The notes beneath the pieces were generated by a model. That model was not told where the DNA came from and made no database searches. It saw only the letters and a program-made list of their open reading frames with translations. A stretch of 36,482 nucleotides of DNA. Origin: a virus. Both the position numbers and the translations under genes were made by a program. Below, piece after piece: positions 3,176-28,319 of this stretch (position 1 is its first letter; every line of letters starts with the position of its first letter). Location of the stretch: positions 1 through 36,482 of the IMG/VR virus record IMGVR_UViG_3300046683_000887; one strand, written 5' to 3'.

Positions 3176-3504
3176 GCTATCAGGCCGAGCGAACCTTCGG
3201 CTGCAGGGAGTGTCTCGACACGCTCTACGTCGTGGGCCCGGCGCCAATCTCGATCAAGGCGAGGCAGTACGGCGTCAGCGAATACGAATGGGACCAGCGG
3301 GGCTATAAGGCCGCGCGGCCGTGCCTCGGCTGCGACGCAGGCCTCAGGATCCACGCCGGTCTGTGGCGCCGGTACATCGTCGAGCACGGTGGCGAGAAAA
3401 AGAAACCCGATCCGGTGCGCGCGCTGGAGTTCGTCGCGGCGATGAACCGGCTCGGAGACGTAGGCCAGCGCATCAAGGATTTCTACCAGCAGGGCGAGAA
3501 GTGA
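3172..3504 (+). CDS. Small zinc-finger phage protein
   Basis: A 110-residue protein starting at GTG within a GTGA overlap. Its N-terminal half has two CxxC pairs (FGCRECLDTLYVV and RPCLGCDAGLRI) about 40 residues apart, suggesting one zinc site. The C-terminal half is helical and charged, ending YQQGEK. Phage proteins with paired CxxC and a central Tyr/Trp motif are common near replication genes, but I cannot name the family. It is followed immediately by the ParB-domain gene. Confidence 0.6.
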   Translation: MSYQAERTFGCRECLDTLYVVGPAPISIKARQYGVSEYEWDQRGYKAARPCLGCDAGLRIHAGLWRRYIVEHGGEKKKPDPVRALEFVAAMNRLGDVGQRIKDFYQQGEK

Positions 3505-5219
3505 ATCGCGACAGCGAGGAGACGGTCCCGATGAGAAGAGCACCGCAGCAAGCGCCCGACGATCAACGCCTGGCGCGGATTGAGAGCAGCTTCGAGCCCT
3601 TCGTCCGCCTGGAGAATATCCGCGAATCCCCGCTCAACCCGCGCAAGGTCTTCCGTGACATGGAGCTCCTGACCGAGAGCGTGCGCGAGAAGGGCGTCAT
3701 CACGCCGCTGCTCCTGCGCACCACCGGCGAAGTCGATCAGCCGTTCGAGATCGCCGCCGGCCACCGGCGCCACCGCGCCGCCGTCGCCGCCGGCGTCACG
3801 GCCGTGCCCGCGGTGATCCGCGACATGTCCGACGCGGAGTTCCTCGAGCTGCTGATCACCGAGAACAACCAGCGCGTCGACGTGCACGCGCTCGAGGAGG
3901 CCTCGGGCTACCAGGCGCTGTTGAAGATCCGCGGCTACGACGTCGGGAAGATCGCGGCGAAGGTCGGCCGTTCCCCGAAGTACGTCTACGACCGGCTGAA
4001 GCTGCTCGAGCTCATCCCGGCGGCGGAGAAGCTGTTCCTCGAGGACCGCTTCACGGCGGGGCACGCGATCCTGCTGGCGCGGCTGAAGCCGGAGGACCAG
4101 AAGCGGGCCATCGCCGTCGACCGCAGCGATTCCGGGTGGGGCGGCGGCCGGCGAAATCTATTCGTCAGCGCCGGTAGCCTCCCCTGGGACGATGACGACT
4201 TCGAGAAGCGCGCGAAGAAAGACCCCTACCTCCGCGTCAAGCCCGTCAGCGTGCGCGAGTTCGAAGCCTGGATCGAGGACAACGTCAAGTTCGACCGCGC
4301 CCTGGCTGACCCGATGCTCTTCCCCGAGACGGCCGAGCTGCTCGAGCAGGCCGAACTGGAGAAGCTCAAGGTCATCCCGGTCACTCGCTCGTATGGCGCC
4401 GGCGCCGAGGTGCGCCAGATCGCGAAAGGCGAGCGCATCTACGGGGAGCAGGCGTGGAAGCGGGCCGACGGGAAGGAAGGGTCGAAGGCCTGCTCGAGCA
4501 CGAAGGTCGGCCTGGTCGCCTGCGGCCAGGGCCAGGGCGAGGCGTTCCGCGTCTGCATCGACAAGGAGAAGTGCGGGATCCACTGGGGCGCGTGGCAGAA
4601 GGAGCGCAAGAAGAGCCGGAAGGCGTCCGGAGACGGCGAATCTCTGACTGCGCTGCGGGAGAGAAACACCGAGGCGATGCGGAAGGCCGAGGCCGAGCGG
4701 GCGCGCGTCGACAAGGCGCTGCCGGATGTCCTGCATGCGATCGCCGCGGCCGTGAAGAAAGTGCCGACGGGATCCAGCTCGCAGCTCGGGAAGATCGTCC
4801 TCGAGCGGGTGACCGGCTGGCGTGGCTTCCATGCGCCGTCGTATCTGGCCAAGCGCGGCGTCGACCCCTCGAAAGTCATGCCGCCCGGGCAGACGGCGCA
4901 GGACCTGGTCCGGCACATCGCGTTCTGGGCCATTGTCCAGGACTTCGTCGACGACATCGTCGCCGTCCCGGAGCTGGTGAAGCGCGCCCACGCCTTCGGC
5001 GTCGACGCCAAGAAGATCCTCGACGAGGTCGCGCCCGTCGAGAAGCCGAAAAGTGCAGACGCGGTGAAACCAACCCGCGGCACCTGCCGGAAGTGCGGCT
5101 GCACCGAGGAGAAGGCCTGCGTCGGCGGCTGCGGGTGGATCGATAAGTCCGAGAGCAGATGTTCGACGTGTTTCAAACCGAGTGTGAAGAGCGGCGGGAA
5201 AAAGAAGGGGCGCACATGA
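3501..5219 (+). CDS. ParB/Srx-domain protein with C-terminal zinc ribbon
   Basis: A 572-residue protein from the GTG that overlaps the previous stop. Residues about 35-125 are a ParB/sulfiredoxin-type domain: NPRKVF, the phosphate-loop-like GHRRHRA (87-93) and ENNQR (121-125). A KorB/ParB-like helix-turn-helix follows (VGKIAAKVGRSPKYVYDRL, about 148-166). The last 45 residues hold a zinc ribbon (CRKCGCTEEKACVGGCGWID, then CSTC). No ParA gene is present, so classical partition is unlikely; phage proteins of this kind may be nucleases or DNA-binding regulators. The stop overlaps the next ATG. Confidence 0.8.
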   Translation: MNRDSEETVPMRRAPQQAPDDQRLARIESSFEPFVRLENIRESPLNPRKVFRDMELLTESVREKGVITPLLLRTTGEVDQPFEIAAGHRRHRAAVAAGVTAVPAVIRDMSDAEFLELLITENNQRVDVHALEEASGYQALLKIRGYDVGKIAAKVGRSPKYVYDRLKLLELIPAAEKLFLEDRFTAGHAILLARLKPEDQKRAIAVDRSDSGWGGGRRNLFVSAGSLPWDDDDFEKRAKKDPYLRVKPVSVREFEAWIEDNVKFDRALADPMLFPETAELLEQAELEKLKVIPVTRSYGAGAEVRQIAKGERIYGEQAWKRADGKEGSKACSSTKVGLVACGQGQGEAFRVCIDKEKCGIHWGAWQKERKKSRKASGDGESLTALRERNTEAMRKAEAERARVDKALPDVLHAIAAAVKKVPTGSSSQLGKIVLERVTGWRGFHAPSYLAKRGVDPSKVMPPGQTAQDLVRHIAFWAIVQDFVDDIVAVPELVKRAHAFGVDAKKILDEVAPVEKPKSADAVKPTRGTCRKCGCTEEKACVGGCGWIDKSESRCSTCFKPSVKSGGKKKGRT

Positions 5220-14027: not shown

Positions 14028-14984
14028 ATGGCGTCGGGTTCGTACCGCACCCAGATGGGGATGTCCCTGAGCCTGTTTCATCCGGTCAGGGACGTCAACG
14101 GCGTCTTCGTCGCCGGGCAGGCCGCGAGCCTGGCGAAGGACCTGCTGGGTCCGGACCGGCTCGCGGCGCCTACCGAGCTCGCAGCGGTCTCGCTCTCCGA
14201 TTACGCCACCGGCTGGGTCCGGGCGACCGCGGCGCTTTTCAGGCTCGGCGAGTACACGCTCTCCCTGACCAACCCCGTCGGCACCGACGGACGCACCGAG
14301 GAATATTCGATCGTCGTAAGCGCCGGGGTGTCGGGCGGCGCGAACCTGCTCACATCGCTCGACCGGGTGAGGACGCGTCTACAGCTCACGGCCGGGGGCG
14401 ACAACCATCCGATTCAGCCCGGGGAACCGCACCCGTTCGACGACCTCATCAACCTGCTCATCTCCGAGGTCTCGGACGAGTACGAAAGGAACCTCGGCCG
14501 CCAGTTCGCCGAGGCGACCTACACGCTCTACCTCGACGGCACGGGGCGGCCGAGCCTGGTCCTCCCGGTCGGGCCGCTCGTCTCGGTCACCTCGCTCGAG
14601 AGCGTGCTCTATGGTGACGACGGCGCCGGCGGCGTGACAGAGAGCCGCACGACCATCCCGCGCTTCTCCTATGTGCTCTCCGGCCTGCGCGCCTCGCCGC
14701 GCTTCAACGGGCTCGGCCGGATCGACCTTTCGGATCCCTACTGCGGCTACTTCACCAAGGGTGCCAAGAATTACAGGTGCATCTGTGTCGCCGGATTCGA
14801 CGTGCTCCCGGAATCGATCGTCGGCCTGGCCACCGAGGACGTGGTGTTCCGCTTGATGACCCGCGACACGGCGCACCTGCTCTCCCGCTCCCTCGGTGAC
14901 GGCTCGATCTCCTACCTGCGGCCGGCGCAGATGCGCGAAGAGCGGGACCAGCGCCTCTCCGCCTTCCTCCTGGACGCGGCCTGA
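14028..14984 (+). CDS. Head-tail connector (gp6-like) with N-terminal extension
   Basis: A 318-residue protein. Residues 1 to about 105 look like a small beta domain (MSLSLFHPVRDVNGVF, then YTLSLTNPVGTDG). From about residue 106, LLTSLDRVRTRLQLTAGGDN followed by DDLINLLISEVSDEYERNLG matches gp6-like connector proteins, which form a ring under the portal. GPLVSVTSLESVLY further along also fits phage adaptor proteins. The ATG has a GGAGAGG-type site upstream. It is followed by a gp10-like protein with a 1-bp overlap (TGATG). Confidence 0.75.
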   Translation: MASGSYRTQMGMSLSLFHPVRDVNGVFVAGQAASLAKDLLGPDRLAAPTELAAVSLSDYATGWVRATAALFRLGEYTLSLTNPVGTDGRTEEYSIVVSAGVSGGANLLTSLDRVRTRLQLTAGGDNHPIQPGEPHPFDDLINLLISEVSDEYERNLGRQFAEATYTLYLDGTGRPSLVLPVGPLVSVTSLESVLYGDDGAGGVTESRTTIPRFSYVLSGLRASPRFNGLGRIDLSDPYCGYFTKGAKNYRCICVAGFDVLPESIVGLATEDVVFRLMTRDTAHLLSRSLGDGSISYLRPAQMREERDQRLSAFLLDAA

Positions 14985-15411: not shown

Positions 15412-15879
15412 ATGCGTCGATTCACCCTGCTCCGCCTGGCCGCAGTCGTGGCGGTCCTGGTCTTCCTCCTTCCGGCGCCGGCTAGTGCGCACACCTCGCT
15501 CGTCCTGAAGGCCTCGGGCGCCCAGACCACGGCCGGCAACGGCTCGGCGGTGGAGATCGGGTCCTTCCGGAGGGCCACGATCTATGTGAACGTGACCGCG
15601 GGCTCGGGGACGGTGAACCCGTTCCGCGTCTGGATCGAAGGCTCGCCCGATGGCACGAACTGGTACGAGCTGCCCTGCGATCTGATTCTGAAGGCGGGAA
15701 CCGCCGCGCCGGGCGCGGGCGCGGTCAATCAGCGGGACATCGTCAACGAGGCGGCGCTCGTGACCTCGCAGAAGTACGTCGCCAACTGCGAGATCTTCAC
15801 CTCCACGATTCGCGCCGCCTGGAACATCGCCGGCGCCACGCCGAGCGAGACCTTCGACATCACCATGGCGGGGAAATAG
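15412..15879 (+). CDS. Exported beta-sandwich protein within the neck/tail cluster
   Basis: A 155-residue protein from ATG 15412 behind AAGGAG. The N-terminus MRRFTLLRLAAVVAVLVFLL followed by PAPASA is a classical Sec signal peptide with AXA cleavage near residue 26. The mature part has YVNVTAGSGTVNPFRVWIEG, SPDGTNWYEL and a closing ETFDITMAGK. It resembles small all-beta phage proteins found in this slot (pattern 'V-T-SGT ... V-EGS-DG-TW ... IGG-TPS-TF'), which, as far as I recall, normally lack signal peptides. It lies between a gp10-like protein and the tail terminator. Either the virion protein is unusually exported or a moron occupies the slot. Confidence 0.75.
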   Translation: MRRFTLLRLAAVVAVLVFLLPAPASAHTSLVLKASGAQTTAGNGSAVEIGSFRRATIYVNVTAGSGTVNPFRVWIEGSPDGTNWYELPCDLILKAGTAAPGAGAVNQRDIVNEAALVTSQKYVANCEIFTSTIRAAWNIAGATPSETFDITMAGK

Positions 15880-18074: not shown

Positions 18075-19982
18075 ATGGGCGGCCAGACCGAACGCACCGT
18101 CAGCATCATCATCAAGGCGAAGGACGACGCCACCTCCGCGTTCGACAACATCGTCCGCTCGGTCACCTCGATCCAGGGCGTTGCCCTGCTGGCCGCGGCC
18201 GCGGTCGCCGGACTGGCTTACGCCTTCGCCAAGGTCACGGATGCGGCCGCGGAGCAGGAGATCGCCGACGTCAAGCTGGCCGCCGCGCTCCGCTCGGTTG
18301 GGGAGAACACTGCCGCCAACCGGCAGCACCTCAACACCTTCATCACCCAGCTCGAGGACCTGACCGGCGTCAGCGACGAAACGATCTCCTCGGCCGTCGG
18401 GCTCATCGCCCAGCTCGCGCGGCTGAGCGGCGCCCCGCTCGAGGATGCCACGCGCAACGCCCTCGACCTCTCGGCCGCGCTGGGGATCGACCTCGAACAG
18501 GCCGCAACGATGGTCGCCCGCGCTACCGAGGGCAATGTCCAGGCGCTCCGGCGCTACGGCATCGTCATCGATGAGACGCTCCCCAAGTCCCAGCAGGCTG
18601 CGGAAGCGGCTCGCCGGATCCATGAGCAGTTCGGCGGCATGGCCGAAGCGATGGGCGGGACCGTCCACGCCGCCTTCGTGCGCATCGCCAACGACTTCGA
18701 CAACCTCGAGCAGGCCCTCGGCAAGGCGGTCATCGAGAACGAGACGTTCCGCGCCCTCCTCGAGATCATCTCCGACCTCCTGAAGCGCGCCACGGGCTTC
18801 GTCGCCGACCACAGCACGGCGATCCAGACCCTGACCACCTGGACGAGTCGCGCGGCGATTGCGGTCATTCGGTTCGGCGTCGAAAACGTCAACCAGCTGG
18901 CGCGCTCGATCCAATCCTGGACGACGCTGACGGAGCTCGTGCTCGGCTTCGCCCTGAAGGTCGAGACCGCCGGCCCCCTCTGGTTGAAGAAGGCTCTGGG
19001 CATCGACGAGGGGGACGTCCTCGGCATCGCCGAAAAGATCGGCAAGCTGGTGATGTTCCTCGAGCAGATCCGGGAGACCGCCCAGGCGGTCGGGGACTCG
19101 ACCTCCGGCGCCCTCGACGACATCCAGAAGCGGCTCGAGGCGATCGGCAAGGGCGTGCACGACACCGCGGCCGGCCTGGGCAAGGGCGTGCCCCCGGCGA
19201 CGGAGAAGCTCGGAGAGCTGGACCAGATCCTCAAGGACCTCGGCGCCGACACAATGCCGCAGCTCGCGGCGATGGCGACCGAAGTCGATCGCGCCCTGGT
19301 GCTCCTCTCTCAGAACCTGGCGGCCGGGAATCTCACACCGGAGCAGTACGACCACATCCTCGAGGTCATCACCCAGATCACCCAGAAGCTGCCGCAGTGG
19401 ACGGACGACAGCAAGGCGGCGCTCATGCCGCTGATCGACATTCGCGACGTGCTGATGGAGATCAGCGACGTGCTCGACCAGCAGCTGCAGGAGAGCACGC
19501 TGCGCTTCTCGGACACCCTGATCGACGGGGCCTTCGGCGCGAAGATCGCCTGGGGCCAGTTCTTCAAGCAGATGCTGGCCGACCTGGCGAAGGCCATCGC
19601 CCGCGCCCTGATCATGAAGTTCATCTTCGAAGCGTTCTCTGGGGGGCTGGGGGGCAGCTTCGGTGATGCGCAGGCGGCAGCAGATGTGGGTGCAGGGGCT
19701 GACTTCGGGCTGGAATCCTCGACGGTCCTGGGGTCAATCAGGCCGGTGGCGGCCGTGTTCCCGACGGCTCAGTCCGCCTCGCCTGGGTTCGCAGCAGCAG
19801 CGTCCGCTGGCGTCAACACCCAGCCTGGGGCCGGACCGTCCGCGAGCGGCCTGATCCAGATGTTCAACCAGATCGTGCCCATCAGGAACCGGGAGGCCGA
19901 GCTGGCCGACCTCATTACGGGAATGAACGAGTTCGTCGAACGGAAGGGCTTCCGCCTGGTGGCGTCGCACGTGCTGGCGTGA
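18075..19982 (+). CDS. Tape measure protein
   Basis: A 635-residue, mostly helical protein. TVSIIIKAKDDATSAFDNIV is a classic tape-measure opening. A hydrophobic segment (VALLAAAAVAGLAYAFAKVT) follows, then repeated coiled-coil blocks such as ARATEGNVQALRRYGIVIDE, FKQMLADLAKAIARALIMKF near the C-terminus, and an alanine/glycine-rich linker. Tape measures set tail length at roughly 1.5 angstroms per residue, so this predicts a short tail near 95 nm. It follows the chaperone pair, as expected. A convergent minus-strand gene begins its stop codon 8 bp downstream. Confidence 0.9.
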   Translation: MGGQTERTVSIIIKAKDDATSAFDNIVRSVTSIQGVALLAAAAVAGLAYAFAKVTDAAAEQEIADVKLAAALRSVGENTAANRQHLNTFITQLEDLTGVSDETISSAVGLIAQLARLSGAPLEDATRNALDLSAALGIDLEQAATMVARATEGNVQALRRYGIVIDETLPKSQQAAEAARRIHEQFGGMAEAMGGTVHAAFVRIANDFDNLEQALGKAVIENETFRALLEIISDLLKRATGFVADHSTAIQTLTTWTSRAAIAVIRFGVENVNQLARSIQSWTTLTELVLGFALKVETAGPLWLKKALGIDEGDVLGIAEKIGKLVMFLEQIRETAQAVGDSTSGALDDIQKRLEAIGKGVHDTAAGLGKGVPPATEKLGELDQILKDLGADTMPQLAAMATEVDRALVLLSQNLAAGNLTPEQYDHILEVITQITQKLPQWTDDSKAALMPLIDIRDVLMEISDVLDQQLQESTLRFSDTLIDGAFGAKIAWGQFFKQMLADLAKAIARALIMKFIFEAFSGGLGGSFGDAQAAADVGAGADFGLESSTVLGSIRPVAAVFPTAQSASPGFAAAASAGVNTQPGAGPSASGLIQMFNQIVPIRNREAELADLITGMNEFVERKGFRLVASHVLA

Positions 19983-19990
19983 GGCGCGAA

Positions 19991-20749
19991 CTACTGGCTG
20001 GCGGCGGACCAGGTCGGAGAGGGCGACGAGGAGCCGGCGGCTCGTGCCCCGGAGGAGACCGCGATGCGACAGGCCTCTTCCGTGTCGAAAGTCAGCGGTC
20101 GCCAATCCCCTGCGAGTCGGTACTTCCTTCCGCCAGCCCTGAGCCTCGTCTCCCGATCGTCCTGTCCCAGGAGAGTGAGCGGCGCGCAGGCTTCGAAGGT
20201 CTCGCGGCAGTCGGGCTGGACGGATTCTACGGCTGCAGCAGTTCCAAGACCGGCGAGAGCCCAGAGTCCAAGGAACTCGCCACCTCCGCCCGAATAGCAC
20301 AAGGGCTGGGGAAGGAAGGCGAGCTGGCCCTCGACCTTGATTCCATTGCGCATGTGCTCCTCTGCCGCGGCAAGCTTCCGTTCCCATTCTGGCGTCAGCG
20401 GCGCCACCGTCAGCGAGATGACCTTCGCGGTGTGTGCTCCCTGGACCTGAAGGTGCAGCTCCTGGCCGGCCACCGCCGACCGGAGCAGCTTCTGCGCGGC
20501 GATGGCGTCGCGCACCGGTCGCCCGTCGATGCTCAGGATCGTGTCTCCGGCGTGCAGCCTCCTGAAGGCCGGCGATACAGCCAGGACGGAGGCGACCTGG
20601 AGCACATGCGGGTTCCCCGGCGGGCTGGTGAACAGGGCGCCGATCAGCCCGGCGCGCGGCGGCAGGTCTATGCCCGGCGCTTCGGGGCCCGCCAGAGCGA
20701 CCGCGGAGAAGGCGCACAGCATCAGGGCGATGAATGGGTGACGGGTCAT
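19991..20749 (-). CDS. Exported PDZ-domain protein encoded antisense (moron candidate)
   Basis: The only convincing minus-strand gene: 252 residues from an ATG at 20749, with GGAGG nine bases upstream. MTRHPFIALMLCAFSAVALA is a Sec signal peptide. Residues about 36-118 form a PDZ-like domain: VLAVSPAFRRLHAGDTILSI, DGRPVRDAIAAQKLLRSAVA and ELHLQVQG. After a helix (EWERKLAAAEEHM), a domain with four cysteines follows (C151, C181, C188, C227), possibly disulfide-bonded in the periplasm. The gene interrupts the tape measure-to-tail-tip order and converges on the tape measure gene with an 8-bp gap. An exported PDZ protein could bind envelope proteases, secretion components or receptors; superinfection exclusion is a guess. 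The overlapping plus-strand frame lacks any protein signature. Confidence 0.8.
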   Translation of the reverse strand: MTRHPFIALMLCAFSAVALAGPEAPGIDLPPRAGLIGALFTSPPGNPHVLQVASVLAVSPAFRRLHAGDTILSIDGRPVRDAIAAQKLLRSAVAGQELHLQVQGAHTAKVISLTVAPLTPEWERKLAAAEEHMRNGIKVEGQLAFLPQPLCYSGGGGEFLGLWALAGLGTAAAVESVQPDCRETFEACAPLTLLGQDDRETRLRAGGRKYRLAGDWRPLTFDTEEACRIAVSSGARAAGSSSPSPTWSAASQ

Positions 20750-20782
20750 TCGGGACGTCCTCCAGGCCCAGACGGGCGGCCT

Positions 20783-20812
20783 TTTCTCAACATCTACCCC
20801 TTCCAGACGGCC
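20783..20812 (-). promoter_or_regulatory. Weak candidate promoter for the antisense PDZ gene
   Basis: On the minus strand, upstream of the ribosome site, TTGCGC is followed after 17 bases by TAGATG. Each hexamer has three of six consensus matches, so support is weak. Just upstream is an 11-bp palindrome GGGAATTTCCC (20821-20831), which could be an operator. Confidence 0.2.
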
Positions 20813-20848
20813 AGCGCAAGGGGAATTTCCCTCCTGGCGGCCGCGTGA

Positions 20849-21943
20849 GTGGGGACGCCCTGGCTCTGGACGCTCGATGACGGCCCCAGCGATCTGGCCG
20901 GGGGAGGGGGGCTCGGGGACCGCCGGCTGCTCTTCTACCCCGAGACCAGCGGGACAATCACGGTCACGATCCCGTTCGGCGGTTCGGGGACGATCTACTT
21001 CTGGTCGGCCGCGAACCAGCCAGGGGCGAGCGACTGGCCGGTGGGGCCCTATCAGGTGGAGCTCTACGTCACCGGGGCGAACGCCCACGTCAACGTCAAG
21101 CTCACGAGCATCACGCGCACCGACGGGTTCGGCACCGCAATCGAGTCGTACGCCTCAGCTGGAGCCGACCTGCCGTGCAGCCCCACCGGCCCGAAGGCTT
21201 GGAGCGGCACCACCCTCGCGCCGGCTATCCAGCCGACCGCTGGGGACCGTGTTCGCCTCGGCTTCACCTTCACGCATGATGGCTCCATCGGCTCGCGGGA
21301 CGTCACCTTCGGGTTCGGCGACCCGACCCGCGACTTCATCCAGGTCCCGATCCTGATGGCGAACCCGCAGATCGTCTGGAACGGAAACACGCTGGCCTTC
21401 CCGGGGCCGCTCACCGGCTACGCCTGGCGATCGAGGGCTGATCGGTCGATGGACGTGAGCGCCGGACGTATCTCGGCGACGGGGCTTCGCAGCTCCTACG
21501 ATGAGGTCCGCGTCCAGCTCGCCAACTTCGACGATGTGCAGTTCTACATGGACTCGCAGGCCTGGTGGTCCTGGGCGCGCCGGGGCAAGCAGTACGCCTT
21601 TGCCCTCGACTCGGCCGACGTGGTCGATCTGGCGCTCAGCGGGGCCGCGGCGGCGGGACAGAAGGACATCCCGCTGGCGGTCACCGCCGCGGTTGTGGTG
21701 GGGCGCCGCTATCGCCTGCGCGAGGCCGCCGGCGACGAGGAGGAGATCGTGCAGATCGCCTCCGTCACCACCAACGTCAAGGCGACGGCGCAGGTCAACC
21801 TGAAGTACGGCTACCTCACCGGAGACGTCTTCCGTTCTCTCGACTACTTCCCCAAGGTGGTCAGCGCTGACAGCGACAAGCCCTTCTCCCAGGGGTTCAC
21901 CACGTATGCGCTCGATCATGTGATGACCGAGGACCGCGGCTGA
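20849..21943 (+). CDS. Minor tail / tail-tip protein
   Basis: A 364-residue protein. The GTG start at 20849 comes immediately after a TGA in the same frame. The sequence is beta-rich: TITVTIPFGGSGTIYFWSA, FGFGDPTRDF, then PQIVWNGNTLAFPGPLTGYA and YDEVRVQLANFDDVQFYMDS, a pattern seen in distal-tail (Dit-like) proteins after the tape measure. The assignment rests on position and general beta content. It ends with a TGATG overlap into the tail-hub gene. The lack of a ribosome site and the antisense gene upstream suggest local disruption. Confidence 0.65.
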   Translation: MGTPWLWTLDDGPSDLAGGGGLGDRRLLFYPETSGTITVTIPFGGSGTIYFWSAANQPGASDWPVGPYQVELYVTGANAHVNVKLTSITRTDGFGTAIESYASAGADLPCSPTGPKAWSGTTLAPAIQPTAGDRVRLGFTFTHDGSIGSRDVTFGFGDPTRDFIQVPILMANPQIVWNGNTLAFPGPLTGYAWRSRADRSMDVSAGRISATGLRSSYDEVRVQLANFDDVQFYMDSQAWWSWARRGKQYAFALDSADVVDLALSGAAAAGQKDIPLAVTAAVVVGRRYRLREAAGDEEEIVQIASVTTNVKATAQVNLKYGYLTGDVFRSLDYFPKVVSADSDKPFSQGFTTYALDHVMTEDRG

Positions 21944-23610
21944 TGCCGTACTCGCCGAACGCCAACTGGAACGCCGCGACTGCTCTGGCGGCTCAGCAGC
22001 CGGTCTACTACATCGCGATCGAGGGGCTGACGGCGTACCACTTCTCGACGGCGCCGGTGCGCTCCGCCTCGGTGACCAAGAAGCCCTATCTGCACGTGCC
22101 GTCGGGGATCGGGCAGAAGGTCTCTCAGCTGCAGGGGCGCACGTCGCTGAACCTCTTCAACCTGCAGCTGACGAACCGGAACGGTGAGATCAACGACCTG
22201 TTCGCGACCGAAGCGGCGAGCCCGACGCTGGCCTCGCTAATCAACCGGCGCGTCACTTTGTACGCCGGCTATGCGGAGCTGTCCGAGGCGGATTACGCCC
22301 CCTGGGCCCAGGGCCGCATCAGGAGCATGCGGAACCTGGCGGAGGGAACGCTCTGGGAGTTCGCCATCACCGACCTGCGCCGCGCGCAGCTCGAGACCAT
22401 CTGCATCAACGCCGACGCCCGCGGCTCGCAGGTCCAGCTCGCCTTCGCCGCCGACACGGCGGCCGGGGCCGGACTCATCGTCACGAACGGCGACCCTTCC
22501 GGCTGGAGCCAGGGGGACCGCATCTTCCTCGGCCCGAGCACCGATGCCGGGAATCCCGGCGCCGAGGAGAAGGTCACCGTTCAGCAGGTACGCAACGTCA
22601 CCAACCAGGTCTTCATCGACCCGCCGCTGACCTTCAACTACAAAGCTGGCGATGCCATCCGCACGGCGAGCACTGTGCTCCAGGGGAGCCCGTACAATAT
22701 CCTCCTGGCATTGCTCACGGGCGATTTCGCCAACGGCTCCTGGCCGCTCGACCTGGCGCTGGGGCTTCCCACCGGGCTTGGAATCGACCCCGCTGACATC
22801 GACGTCGCGAGCATCCAGAAGGAGCGGGACCGCAGCCGGGTCGGCTGGATCATGCGCTTCGACATCGCGCGGCCAACCGGAGGATCGTCTTTCATCGAGG
22901 CGAACATCTACCGGTGGCTCGGCTACCCGAGGATCCTGCTGAATGGCAAGATCTCCTTCCGCGCTTTCCGAGCCCCCTACTCGGACGACGTCATCACCGG
23001 CCTGGCGACACTGACGGAGGCCGACATCATCGACTGGGAGAGCGATCGCGACGTCGATTCTCACGTCAACCGCGTCGTCCTGGGCGTCGATACGGCGCTC
23101 GGTGGCGGCCAGCCGGCGCAGATCGTCACCTCCGAAGATACCGCCGACCAGGCGCTCACTGAGGAGCAGGCGGAAGAGCGCGAGGACTCGACCGGGTTCA
23201 TCGGCGCGTCGGCGGGGATCCGGCACGCAGCATCGGCGGGCTCTGTGTTCCTACGCCGCTTTCTCGACGGGCCCTGGCAGGTGCGCCTGCATTGCCACCG
23301 GACCAAGCGTGCCCTCGAGGTCGGGGAGGACGTCCTCCTGACGCACTCCCGAATCCCGAACCCCGCGAGCGCAACTCCCGGGGTCTCGGCGCGGCGCATG
23401 GAGATCGTCGAACGGAATGAGGACCTCGCCGGCGGACGTGTCGAGCTGGTACTGCAGGACGCCAACTTCACCCGACCCTGGATCATCGGACCGCCTGGGG
23501 GACTGCCACTGTACGACTCGGCGAGCGCCTCCGACAAGGAGCACTTCTACATCGGGCCCTCGGGTGGGGGCAATTTCGGCGACGGCTTGCCGACCTACGA
23601 GATCTGCTGA
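21943..23610 (+). CDS. Tail-tip hub / baseplate protein
   Basis: A 555-residue protein starting at an ATG that overlaps the previous stop. It begins PYSPNANWNAATALAAQQPV and continues with NLQLTNRNGEINDLFATEAA, RVTLYAGYAELSEADYAPW, QGRIRSMRNLAEGTLWEFAI and NRVVLGVDTALGG. This order of beta domains resembles siphovirus tail hub proteins that attach fibres and contact the host. No catalytic motif was recognised. The next gene overlaps by TGATG. Confidence 0.6.
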   Translation: MPYSPNANWNAATALAAQQPVYYIAIEGLTAYHFSTAPVRSASVTKKPYLHVPSGIGQKVSQLQGRTSLNLFNLQLTNRNGEINDLFATEAASPTLASLINRRVTLYAGYAELSEADYAPWAQGRIRSMRNLAEGTLWEFAITDLRRAQLETICINADARGSQVQLAFAADTAAGAGLIVTNGDPSGWSQGDRIFLGPSTDAGNPGAEEKVTVQQVRNVTNQVFIDPPLTFNYKAGDAIRTASTVLQGSPYNILLALLTGDFANGSWPLDLALGLPTGLGIDPADIDVASIQKERDRSRVGWIMRFDIARPTGGSSFIEANIYRWLGYPRILLNGKISFRAFRAPYSDDVITGLATLTEADIIDWESDRDVDSHVNRVVLGVDTALGGGQPAQIVTSEDTADQALTEEQAEEREDSTGFIGASAGIRHAASAGSVFLRRFLDGPWQVRLHCHRTKRALEVGEDVLLTHSRIPNPASATPGVSARRMEIVERNEDLAGGRVELVLQDANFTRPWIIGPPGGLPLYDSASASDKEHFYIGPSGGGNFGDGLPTYEIC

Positions 23611-24558: not shown

Positions 24559-25656
24559 ATGCGATCGATTCGAAAGGTCCTTACCTGGGGCAGTCTCGGT
24601 CTCGCCGCTGGCTTGGCGCTGATAGCCCTGGTCGTCCCGCGCGAGCTCTCGGCTGCGGGATACACCATCACCGAGACCATCCTGCAGGGGCGGCAGTGGG
24701 TCTACTCGACGGTGCAGACGTTCTCCGCGGGAATCAGCGCACCGTCCAATCGCATCCCCGGCTCGACCTCCTATACCAACAGCGGCGCCGCGCAGCTCCT
24801 GCAGTTCCAGGCCGATTTCACGATAGCGGACACGATCGGCGCCCCGACCGGAGGGACGACGGGGGGGTTCGGCAGCTGCACCAACGCCACGTCGGAGAGC
24901 TATCGAATCGCGGTGAGCTTCCTTAACCCGAGCGGAGAGACCGCGATCGGTGGCGTGCTTCCATTCACGACGAGCGGCACGGGGAAGCAGATCCAGAACA
25001 TCAACCGGCCCACGGCCCCAGCGCTCGCGACGCACTGGCGCTTCTGGTACGCCAAGAACAGCGAGACCTTCGGCGTCTGGCGCGCCTGCAACACCACGAG
25101 CGCCGGGTCGGGAGGAACGTCGACCAAGCCCTACTTCGCCGTCGGCTCCACCGTCGGAGCCTGCGCCTGCGCGGTCGGCGCGGTCGGTCCGCCCGCGAAC
25201 ACCACCGGACCGTTCACCTTCGCCGACGTGCGCGACGGTGAGATGCGATTTTTCCCTGGCAGCACGACGGTCGCGGAAGGGACCACGAGCCCGGTCCTCA
25301 CTTCCAGCGTCGGCCTCGACCGCCTCTACGTGCGCGGACCGACGGCGCAGGTCTCCTTCGACGGCGGCGCCACGACGCAGACGCTCCTGACGAACACGGC
25401 CGCGACGCTGACGACGGGCACACGCCTCTACCTCGACGGCGGCGCGAATACCTACCTCGTCTGGGACGCCGCGACGCAGCAAGTGCAGGTCGTGACGGGC
25501 AACGTCGTCAGGGGACGTATCACCTCCACGGGCGTCGCTCCCGGGGACTGCGACCTCGACGTGTACGGCCTCGGGAAGGGGGAGCAGTGCTACGAGCCGA
25601 CGAGCGGGATCACGTGGATACGAGACGAGCGCGGCGTGCACCAGGTAGGCTCGTGA
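24559..25656 (+). CDS. Exported fibre-like protein
   Basis: A 365-residue protein starting at ATG 24559, chosen because it begins after the terminator and opens with a basic region and hydrophobic core (MRSIRKVLTWGSLGLAAGLA, then LIALVVPRELSAAG), a Sec signal peptide or signal anchor. The mature part is threonine/serine-rich and beta-like. The C-terminal third has VSFDGGATTQTLLT and LYLDGGANTYLVWDAATQQV, resembling tail-fibre repeats. A fibre with a signal peptide is odd, because tails assemble in the cytoplasm. It overlaps the next gene by GTGA. Alternatives are a lipid- or membrane-tethered receptor-blocking protein, or a fibre that uses the segment as a trimer tip. Confidence 0.65.
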   Translation: MRSIRKVLTWGSLGLAAGLALIALVVPRELSAAGYTITETILQGRQWVYSTVQTFSAGISAPSNRIPGSTSYTNSGAAQLLQFQADFTIADTIGAPTGGTTGGFGSCTNATSESYRIAVSFLNPSGETAIGGVLPFTTSGTGKQIQNINRPTAPALATHWRFWYAKNSETFGVWRACNTTSAGSGGTSTKPYFAVGSTVGACACAVGAVGPPANTTGPFTFADVRDGEMRFFPGSTTVAEGTTSPVLTSSVGLDRLYVRGPTAQVSFDGGATTQTLLTNTAATLTTGTRLYLDGGANTYLVWDAATQQVQVVTGNVVRGRITSTGVAPGDCDLDVYGLGKGEQCYEPTSGITWIRDERGVHQVGS

Positions 25657-28319
25657 AGCGGGCCCTCCTCTTTCTCGCGCTGCTCGTAGCCCCGACGCTC
25701 GCGGCTGCGCAGTGCACCTCGAAGGCGGCGTGCGCGACCGCGCCCTGCGGATGGTCGACCGGCTTCGACAACGGCACGGGCTGCACCGCGCCGCCCGACA
25801 CCGCCGAGCCGTGGACCATCAGCGCGGGGCACACGGTCGTCGTCGACGCGGACGGCACGAGCGGCGGGCAGGGAACGCTCAACGGCACCCTCCTGTGCGG
25901 CGCCGACTACGCGACGCCCGACGCGCAGGGCTTCGTCGACTTCACGCTCAAGACGACGGCGGCGCAGAACATCGTCACGGGCACCGGCGTGTTCCGCGCT
26001 CGCAAGGGCTGCCGGATCAACCACGACAGCACGTCGGGGCTGCCGACGTGGGCGCCCACCACCGGCTTCGTCCTCGACGTCCAGGGCGAGGTCACCTACG
26101 CGACGGTCGCCAGCGCCACGCTCACGCTGGCCAAGTCCGCGGTCTGCGGACCCGGGGCCAACGGCGTCAACGGCAACGGCGACGAGTGGGCGCTCACGTT
26201 CTCGGGCGGCGTGGAGGCGCACGCGCAGCTCGGGCGCCCGATCTACTTCCTCGACGGCGGATGGCGCGCCCGGGAGTACGAGATCATGCGGATCGCCGGG
26301 AGCACGGTCACCGTCTGCGCCGGGCTGCCGGACGCGGTCTACCCGGCGGTGGCCTGCGACGGCGCGAACCGCTCGAGCTGCGGCGAGCGCTTCCGCGGTC
26401 ACGTCGCGGTGGGCGCCTTCCCGGACGGCACGCCGTCGGCTCCCGCGGGCGCGCGGCACAGCGTCCCGACGGACATGCAGCCCGCCACCGCGCAGGGCGA
26501 GTGCACCGGGGACGGCGCGCCGGACCCGTACTGCACCGGGGCCAACGCCAAGGAGATCACCGCGACCGTGACCCCGGCGGCCGGTGATCATGTCGCCATC
26601 ATTCAGGACGTCTGGATCATGCAGTCGGCCGGCACGGCCGGCTTCGTGTTCAACCTCGGGTTCGCCAGCCCGATGCCGTTCTTGACGTCTGTGAACATCC
26701 AGGGTGGCGGCAGCGCCGCACCTCAGTACGTGATGCTCATGGAGTCGTCCAGCAGCGCGGTCGGCAACGACGTGCGCTTCGTCAACGTCGGCAACAGCTA
26801 CGGCGGCATCCACGTCGGCGGCTTCAGGGGGGCGAGCGCGTCTCGCCCGATGCGGTACTCGAACAACGTCTGCCACGACATGAGCGGGGTGGGCGTGCAG
26901 AACGGCGGGTGCTTCGAGATCCTCGGGCGCTCCTCGCCCGCCCGCCCGATCGACGACGTGTGGTTCACCGACAACGACCTCTACAGGACGACGGGCAACG
27001 CGCTGCAGTTCAACGCGCAGGGCCAGCAGGCCGACCCGAGCCACCGTAACAAGGTGCAGCGGAACCGCGTCCACGAGGGCTGCACCAACACGGGCTCAGA
27101 GTGCAACGGCCTCGAGGTCGCCGCGGCGATCGGCGCGGACGTCTCCTACAACGCGATCAACGACTTCGACCCGGTGGACCACACCTCTGCGAGCTGTCTG
27201 CGCGTCATCCCCGACATCGAGAGCGTCGGCCTCAACTCGGCGGTGCACCACAACTGGGCGGTGAACTGCCAGGCCAACGCGCTGATCGCCGGCGTCGGAA
27301 GTAACGGCGGCGGGCGCGTCGTCGGGACGACGGCCAACTACTTCGCCAACACCGGGGCGGCGGTGATCTCCGGGGGCAGGGCCTACGGGAACGTCCTACG
27401 CAACGCCGGCCTCACGGCCACGGCCACGGTGTTCAACGGCGCGAGGTACAGCGCAGGGAACATGGTGATCGGGAACGACGAACTGCAGCGCCTCTCGGCC
27501 TCGTGCAACGCGCGCATCTGCTCGTCCGTGGGGATCTCGCAGAACGGCACCGACAACCCGTCCGCGAGCGTCGAGCCGTGCGTGATCACCGACACGGTGG
27601 TCGCTAACCTCGACGACACGACGGTCAACGCGGCCTACGTCTGGCCGAACTCCAGCACTCTCCCGATGAACGCGACGGTCGGTCACGTCACCTGCGATGG
27701 CATCGGCTCCGGCGCCGTGCCCTGCGTCACCGCCGACTCATGGACTCCGAGCGCGCCGATGACCTTCACGGTCTCGGATGTCGCGGCCTTCGACACGAAC
27801 GGCGGGGCGACCATCCACTGCACGGCCGACGCCAACCGGACGGACGTGCTCGGCACCTACTTCTCGGCGAACGCCTTCCCCGCGTCGCTGTCGTCCGGCC
27901 TCGCGGCAGGGTGCGATTCCGTCGGAACCGCAGCGACGGGGACCAGCACCCCGGCGGTGGACAAGAACGGCCTCGACTACGCGATCCCGATCGGCCTTGC
28001 CGCGCTGACCGGAGGCGCCTCGCCGTCCGGGTCCTCTCTCGGGTCACGCGGGTTCTATTTCGACGTCGACGCGATCACTTCGGTGTGGCCCGGCCTGCCG
28101 TTCTATGACAGCGCGGGCAGCACGGGGCGGCCGCCGTTCCCCAAGAACTTCTGCAACGTCATCGGGGACGGCGTGAACATCGACTGCCGCGACACGGACG
28201 GGGACGGCATCATGGACTTCCTCGACAACTGCCCGCGCAAGTTCAACCCTTCGCAGTATGACGGCGATGGCGATGGGATCGGCTGCGCCTGCGAGACCTC
28301 GGGAGACGCCTGCCCTTGA
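25653..28319 (+). CDS. Large exported beta-helix-like protein with thrombospondin type-3 repeats
   Basis: An 888-residue protein from GTG 25653 (GTGA overlap). MKRALLFLALLVAPTLAAA is a clean Sec signal peptide. The N-terminal region is Cys-rich (QCTSKAACATAPCGW). The central part (about 370-650) has parallel beta-helix character: short Asn/Gly-rich turns such as RYSNNVCHDMSG, VWFTDNDLYRTTGNALQFNA and NKVQRNRVHEGC recur every 20-25 residues. Residues about 846-888 carry DTDGDGIMDFLDNCP and DGDGDGIGC, calcium-binding thrombospondin type-3 repeats. It may be a fibre/tailspike-like adhesin or polysaccharide-active protein, but I saw no catalytic residues. The same domain pairing is common in secreted proteins of Myxococcota-like hosts. 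Confidence 0.75.
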   Translation: MKRALLFLALLVAPTLAAAQCTSKAACATAPCGWSTGFDNGTGCTAPPDTAEPWTISAGHTVVVDADGTSGGQGTLNGTLLCGADYATPDAQGFVDFTLKTTAAQNIVTGTGVFRARKGCRINHDSTSGLPTWAPTTGFVLDVQGEVTYATVASATLTLAKSAVCGPGANGVNGNGDEWALTFSGGVEAHAQLGRPIYFLDGGWRAREYEIMRIAGSTVTVCAGLPDAVYPAVACDGANRSSCGERFRGHVAVGAFPDGTPSAPAGARHSVPTDMQPATAQGECTGDGAPDPYCTGANAKEITATVTPAAGDHVAIIQDVWIMQSAGTAGFVFNLGFASPMPFLTSVNIQGGGSAAPQYVMLMESSSSAVGNDVRFVNVGNSYGGIHVGGFRGASASRPMRYSNNVCHDMSGVGVQNGGCFEILGRSSPARPIDDVWFTDNDLYRTTGNALQFNAQGQQADPSHRNKVQRNRVHEGCTNTGSECNGLEVAAAIGADVSYNAINDFDPVDHTSASCLRVIPDIESVGLNSAVHHNWAVNCQANALIAGVGSNGGGRVVGTTANYFANTGAAVISGGRAYGNVLRNAGLTATATVFNGARYSAGNMVIGNDELQRLSASCNARICSSVGISQNGTDNPSASVEPCVITDTVVANLDDTTVNAAYVWPNSSTLPMNATVGHVTCDGIGSGAVPCVTADSWTPSAPMTFTVSDVAAFDTNGGATIHCTADANRTDVLGTYFSANAFPASLSSGLAAGCDSVGTAATGTSTPAVDKNGLDYAIPIGLAALTGGASPSGSSLGSRGFYFDVDAITSVWPGLPFYDSAGSTGRPPFPKNFCNVIGDGVNIDCRDTDGDGIMDFLDNCPRKFNPSQYDGDGDGIGCACETSGDACP

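What the first reader, a model, noticed from the sequence alone, without database searches (positions are those of the whole stretch)
19991..20749. Antisense exported PDZ protein inside the tail module
The sole minus-strand gene lies between tape measure and tail-tip genes, with its own ribosome site and signal peptide. PDZ proteins in the periplasm act in proteolysis or secretion. Its placement is that of a moron, expressed independently of the late operon. A phage-encoded periplasmic PDZ protein without a protease domain could be a decoy for DegP/RseP-type quality control or an exclusion factor.
Basis: partly seen in the sequence, partly recalled or inferred. Interest (0 to 1): 0.68.

Follow-up and report, generated by a model that had tools for sequence, protein, structure and literature searches.

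The report
Swappable antisense gene beside phage tape-measure
This bacterial virus carries, backwards inside its tail-gene block, a gene for an exported peptide-binding (PDZ) protein; seven related uncultured viruses also have a backwards gene at exactly that spot, but not always the same one, which makes it look like a dedicated slot for genes that a dormant virus uses in the host's cell envelope, most likely to keep competing viruses out.

Summary
The minus-strand ORF 19991-20749 (252 aa) is a real gene: signal peptide, PDZ domain (PF00595 E=3e-7; nearest solved relatives are HtrA/DegP PDZ1) and a new C-terminal domain with four invariant cysteines. No homologue was found among GenBank phages or, in narrow motif scans, bacterial genomes. 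Seven relatives recovered from IMG/VR all carry an antisense gene at the same place, abutting the tape-measure (TMP) stop. Four of the eight phages (window, L002, L003, L021) have the PDZ protein; L023/L024 have an exported Cys-rich protein; L020 a HIRAN-like protein with a C-terminal membrane helix; L019 a LITAF-like zinc-ribbon/membrane protein. L020 and L021 are 77-88% identical in tail-tube and TMP proteins yet carry unrelated cargo; identity breaks at the TMP stop and resumes at the promoter. Seven of eight have a minus-strand promoter-like element. All four near-full-length contigs carry an integrase. Best reading: a conserved antisense moron slot with interchangeable envelope-directed cargo, probably superinfection exclusion aimed at the TMP/DNA-injection step. 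Post hoc clue: PDZ-bearing phages have TMPs ending -V[LV]A-COOH (4/4 versus 0/4). The protease-decoy idea has no specific support. Function and expression are inferred, not shown.

The parts
19991..20749 (-). antisense gene: exported PDZ + four-cysteine-domain protein, 252 aa
   Evidence: syntenic antisense homologues L002:5139-5879, L003:5158-5901, L021:6532-7245
20690..20749 (-). signal peptide (residues 1-20, AVALA|GPEA), read by eye from the sequence
   Evidence: crude hydropathy heuristic, no SignalP; signal-peptide-like N-termini in all four PDZ homologues
20423..20644 (-). PDZ domain (residues 36-109), carboxylate-loop-like LIGA
   Evidence: Pfam PF00595 3.1e-7, PF13180 4.3e-7; PDB HtrA/DegP PDZ by profile, E to 2e-11 and by Foldseek
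20042..20332 (-). C-terminal domain (residues 140-236), Cys151, 181, 188, 227 invariant in four homologues
   Evidence: no Pfam or PDB match
20759..20763 (-). ribosome-binding site GGAGG
   Evidence: sequence
20791..20819 (-). promoter-like element TTGCGC-N17-TAGATG
   Evidence: same pattern in L002, L003, L019, L020, L021 (spacer 17) and L024 (spacer 16)
18075..19982 (+). tape measure protein, C-terminus ...VASHVLA; left border of the slot and proposed target
   Evidence: PHROG tape measure 5e-6
20849..21943 (+). next tail gene, right border of the slot in this phage
   Evidence: 55-69% identical homologues in L002 and L003
31918..32787 (+). tyrosine integrase (temperate life style)
   Evidence: PF00589 7e-30, also in L002, L019, L021 contigs

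Best explanation
The region between the TMP stop and the next tail gene is a conserved antisense moron slot. A minus-strand promoter drives one small gene whose product goes to the host envelope, independently of the late operon and so presumably in the lysogen. Cargo is exchanged between phages while promoter and flanks stay. In this phage the cargo is a periplasmic PDZ protein with a disulfide-type four-cysteine domain. Most likely function: superinfection exclusion at the DNA-injection step, by binding an incoming sibling phage's TMP or the host factor it uses in the periplasm. Shown by sequence: gene, domains, synteny, cargo exchange, promoter-like element, integrase. Inferred: transcription in the lysogen, export, exclusion, TMP as target.
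For: Antisense gene at the same place in 8 of 8 phages, its stop 5-14 nt from the TMP stop (34-nt overlap in L003). L020/L021: tail tube 88%, TMP 77%, gene X 81% DNA identity, promoter flank 72%, but cargo unrelated (HIRAN-like+TM vs PDZ), with sharp identity breakpoints. PDZ presence does not follow relatedness: L019 is nearest L003 by tail tube (79%) but lacks it. Promoter-like element in 7 of 8; chance per upstream region 0.4-7% in shuffles. All cargoes carry a signal peptide or membrane helix. Integrase in all four near-full contigs. TMP and slot cargo diverge faster than neighbouring tail genes. Precedent: HK97 gp15, a moron-encoded predicted inner-membrane exclusion protein escaped by swapping tail-tube/TMP genes, and TP-J34 Ltp, an exported lipoprotein overcome by TMP changes (PMC10883804; PMC3952083); SNIPE acts through TMPs (PMC13190303).
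Against: No expression data. The promoter match is modest (TAGATG matches the -10 consensus at 3 of 6) and the standard consensus scan found none. No intrinsic terminator directly after the gene. No relative with an empty slot, so insertion as such is not shown. No cargo matches a known defence family. Host unknown. Envelope-directed cargo could serve other lysogenic-conversion roles. Only eight phages.
Confidence: 0.45

Rival explanations
1. Same antisense moron slot, but the cargo serves another lysogenic-conversion role in the envelope (stress tolerance, surface change, interbacterial competition) rather than phage exclusion.
For: All cargo is envelope-directed but of unrelated families; no defence-family match; a HIRAN-like and a LITAF-like protein are not known exclusion factors.
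Against: Position beside the TMP and fast divergence together with the TMP fit an injection-related arms race better; precedent for exclusion morons.
Confidence: 0.3
2. The PDZ protein is a decoy or modulator of host periplasmic proteases (DegP/DegS/RseP, Prc), tuning envelope stress in lysogens or during lysis.
For: PDZ closest by profile and fold to HtrA/DegP/DegQ PDZ1; no protease domain; carboxylate loop kept (LIGA/YIGF/DIGI/WFGT, read).
Against: HtrA PDZs are a very common kind of bacterial PDZ in the PDB, so the resemblance is not specific; the slot is held by non-PDZ cargo in half the phages.
Confidence: 0.1
3. The conserved function is the antisense promoter itself: transcription through the TMP gene in the lysogen silences leaky late expression, and the ORF is a passenger.
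For: Promoter-like element kept while cargo changes; no terminator directly after the gene in any of the eight, only weak hairpin-T matches further inside the TMP region in L002 and L021.
Against: The ORFs are conserved as proteins (four invariant Cys, signal peptides, PDZ), which a passenger would not be.
Confidence: 0.08
4. The gene makes a virion or assembly factor (for example a periplasmic tail-tip chaperone) made late despite its orientation.
For: Lies inside the tail module and diverges fast like the TMP.
Against: Antisense to the late operon with its own promoter-like element and swapped for unrelated cargo between close relatives; a structural part would not be exchanged for a HIRAN-like membrane protein.
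Confidence: 0.05

Closest known systems
HK97 gp15 (moron-encoded superinfection exclusion protein)
   Same: Moron-encoded envelope protein of a long-tailed temperate phage; exclusion depends on tail-tube/TMP identity (PMC10883804). From memory, its gene also lies in the tail region.
   Different: gp15 is a predicted inner-membrane protein; here the product is a periplasmic PDZ + four-Cys protein, antisense, in a slot whose cargo is exchanged. The two sequences were not compared. Exclusion is untested here.
TP-J34 Ltp superinfection exclusion lipoprotein
   Same: Exported, prophage-encoded, TMP is the target (PMC3952083, PMC10883804).
   Different: Lipoprotein of a Gram-positive host, gene beside the integrase rather than in the tail module; no PDZ.
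HtrA/DegP/DegQ PDZ1 domain
   Same: PDZ fold and carboxylate-binding-loop-type motif.
   Different: No trypsin-like protease domain; followed by a new four-Cys domain instead.
Phage morons in general
   Same: Independent promoter-like element, atypical codon use, differing cargo among relatives.
   Different: No terminator and no empty-slot relative found; position, orientation and promoter are kept across eight phages, so it is a standing slot rather than a sporadic insertion.

Membership tests
PDZ domain (PF00595/PF13180) | profile match above curated cut-off | tested here: met
   PF00595 31.1 bits (cut-off 23.2), PF13180 30.5 (27); L002 and L021 homologues also above cut-off; L003 24.0 bits, below
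PDZ domain (PF00595/PF13180) | binds C-terminal peptides | not testable with these tools
   carboxylate-loop-like motif kept in 4 of 4 homologues by inspection
HtrA/DegP protease family | trypsin-like protease domain | tested here: not met
   no protease domain in Pfam or NCBIfam; degP model matched only in its PDZ part
Phage moron | inserted between genes adjacent in relatives | tested here: inconclusive
   cargo exchange shown (L020/L021) but none of the 7 relatives has an empty slot
Phage moron | own promoter | tested here: inconclusive
   sequence only: promoter-like element kept in 7 of 8, but the standard sigma-70 scan found none in the window
Phage moron | own terminator | tested here: not met
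   none in the window
Phage moron | foreign composition | tested here: met
   codon score 0.10 vs roughly 0.3-0.76 bits/codon for other supported phage genes tested
Superinfection exclusion protein (HK97 gp15 / Ltp type) | protects lysogen at DNA-injection step | not testable with these tools
   host and phage uncultured
Superinfection exclusion protein (HK97 gp15 / Ltp type) | envelope location | tested here: met
   signal-peptide-like N-terminus or membrane helix in all 8 slot products (crude hydropathy heuristic only)
Known anti-phage defence family (PADLOC) | profile match | tested here: not met
   no match for any of 8 slot products

The most novel reading that the evidence does not exclude
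The exported PDZ domain recognises the C-terminal tail of the tape measure protein (-VLA/-VVA-COOH) as a superinfecting sibling phage ejects it into the periplasm, and so blocks DNA entry: a phage using PDZ tail recognition for exclusion, encoded next to the very codons that make the ligand. PDZ-bearing phages end their TMP in HVLA, HVVA, EVVA, TVLA; non-PDZ phages in EVLS, AVVG, ELRA, EVVG. The tail differs within both closest PDZ/non-PDZ pairs (L003/L019, L021/L020). Caveats: post hoc (Fisher p = 1/70), few independent events, often a single-codon difference, and tail codons could hitchhike with cargo recombination.
Probability: 0.15. Interest if true: 0.82.

Novelty: new variant of a known kind. 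Interest (0 to 1): 0.6.

Why it matters
Exclusion morons have mostly been described one phage at a time. A slot at a fixed position, antisense to and abutting the tape-measure gene, with a retained promoter-like element and interchangeable envelope cargo, would be a natural catalogue of injection-blocking proteins: read the slot in any relative and obtain candidates. It also yields a new exported PDZ + four-Cys family and a concrete, cheap test (does the PDZ bind TMP tails?).

Tried and rejected
Plus-strand ORF 19979-20848 as the true gene: rejected (no family hit, negative codon score). Recent one-off acquisition: rejected (same place in three other phages, 23-33% identity). Close homologues of P0001 in GenBank phages, IMG/VR or GTDB by single-protein search: none. 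Bacterial prophages by tail protein A2: none, but that scan used only two short motifs. Conserved intergenic motif as a viral-collection DNA query: returned nothing because my pattern had one N too many (it failed to recover even L002/L003), so it is uninformative. Capsid relatives L004-L012: no related TMP or tail tube. Homology of the four-Cys domain with L023/L024: suggestive only (hhalign P 8e-4 but 25% probability; HMM score reached by 0 of 2000 shuffles for L024, 29 of 2000 for L023). Second AlphaFold run with four sequences gave a weaker PDZ but better C-terminal model; neither identifies the C-terminal fold: Foldseek aligns about 210 columns to DegQ/DegP but at about 13-18 A rmsd.

Full report
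1. The observation. The minus-strand ORF 19991-20749 exists as described. At 68% GC a long antisense ORF is weak evidence by itself, and a plus-strand ORF overlaps it. The minus-strand ORF is nevertheless the real gene: it matches PDZ (PF00595 E=3.1e-7) where the plus rival matches nothing, it has a signal peptide and a GGAGG ribosome site, and its homologues occur in three other phages. Its codon use departs from that of most other genes of the phage. The window is an IMG/VR virus record of a temperate HK97-fold phage with a tail tube and tape measure: Phage_capsid, PF18906, portal, S78 protease, ParB, integrase. No GenBank phage matches its TMP well (24-26% over parts), and none matches proteins 21943-23610 or 14028-14984.

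2. The relatives. A neighbouring tail protein found L002 and L003; a tail-tube alignment found L019, L020, L021, L023 and L024. In all seven, as in the window, an antisense gene abuts the TMP stop: the gap is 5-14 nt, or a 34-nt overlap in L003. The products differ. Window, L002, L003 and L021: signal peptide + PDZ + four-Cys domain, 23-31% identical in local alignments. L023 and L024: signal peptide + Cys-rich protein, 37% identical to each other. L020: HIRAN-like (E=0.004, below cut-off) with a strong C-terminal membrane helix. L019: a 76-aa zinc-ribbon/membrane protein, LITAF-like (E=0.05, below cut-off). The last two names are therefore tentative; their hydrophobic segments are not.

3. 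Exchange of cargo. L020 and L021 are close: tail tube 88%, TMP 77%, next tail gene 78% identical. Nucleotide identity runs at about 75-90% in most flanking segments, falls to 35-43% (unrelated) from the TMP stop to the promoter, and returns to about 84% in gene X. One carries the HIRAN-like gene, the other the PDZ gene. PDZ presence also cuts across relatedness: L019 is nearest L003 by tail tube (79%) and lacks it. This is the strongest evidence that the locus is a slot.

4. Promoter. Upstream of the antisense gene, TTG[C/T]NN-N16/17-TA[T/G] occurs in 7 of 8 phages; TTGCGC with spacer 17 in the window, L002, L019 and L020, near variants in L003 and L021, and TTGTCT-N16-TATAAT in L024. Shuffled upstream sequences contain such a match with probability 0.004-0.07 each; related phages are not independent trials, and the pattern was chosen after looking at the sequences. 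A strict consensus scan of the window finds no promoter, so the claim rests on conservation. No intrinsic terminator follows directly, so antisense reading into the TMP gene is possible.

5. The protein. PDZ best resembles HtrA/DegP PDZ1 and keeps a carboxylate-loop-like motif (LIGA/YIGF/DIGI/WFGT). The C-terminal domain has four cysteines, all invariant across the four homologues, and no relative in Pfam or the PDB. L023/L024 may contain a distant version of it; if so, the four-Cys domain rather than the PDZ is the commoner cargo core (six of eight). This is unproven.

6. Mechanism. Envelope-directed cargo, independent promoter-like element, temperate phage and position beside the TMP together point to lysogen-expressed superinfection exclusion. 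HK97 gp15 and TP-J34 Ltp are precedents in which exclusion is tied to the TMP (PMC10883804, PMC3952083), and SNIPE shows TMP recognition by a bacterial defence (PMC13190303). TMP and slot products are among the fastest-diverging genes here. A more specific hypothesis came from the data: PDZ domains bind C-termini, and the four PDZ phages' TMPs end in -V[LV]A while the four others do not. It is post hoc and small, and recombination at the border could carry tail codons along.

7. Verdict. I file it as a new variant of a known kind (moron / probable superinfection exclusion). Confidence: about 0.85 for the antisense slot with interchangeable cargo, about 0.45 for exclusion as the function, about 0.15 for PDZ recognition of the TMP tail. 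Literature searches for phage PDZ morons returned nothing relevant; the library lacks most subscription journals.

Noticed in passing
window 15412-15879 (+): Small protein between head-completion-like and tail-tube genes with a clear signal-peptide-like N-terminus (MRRFTLLRLAAVVAVLVFLLPAPASA); homologues at 49-66% identity in six of seven relatives, with a similar N-terminus visible in the L002 contig. An exported protein inside the virion module is unexplained.
   Followed up: partly
window 25653-28319 (+): 888-aa protein with signal-peptide-like start (MKRALLFLALLVAPTLAAA) and C-terminal thrombospondin type 3 repeat (E=6e-5, below cut-off); such DGDGxxDxxDNCP repeats hint at a Myxococcota-like host (inference from memory).
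   Followed up: no
L019:11868-12149 (+): Lipoprotein-like small gene directly beside the antisense slot gene, on the other strand.
   Followed up: no
L020/L021 TMP genes: Between these close relatives the TMP is mostly 65-92% identical per 50-column block, but blocks at alignment columns 400-450 and 600-700 fall to 35-49%; the slot cargo differs in the same pair.
   Followed up: partly
L020:12128-12487, L021:7338-7698 and counterparts in L023, L024 (+): Extra plus-strand gene X between the slot and the next tail gene in these relatives, absent from window/L002/L003; weak match to a virion structural PHROG (E=2e-4).
   Followed up: no
window 3321-5219 (+): Large ParB-like protein (ParB_N + HTH_ParB) in an integrase-bearing phage.
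   Followed up: no
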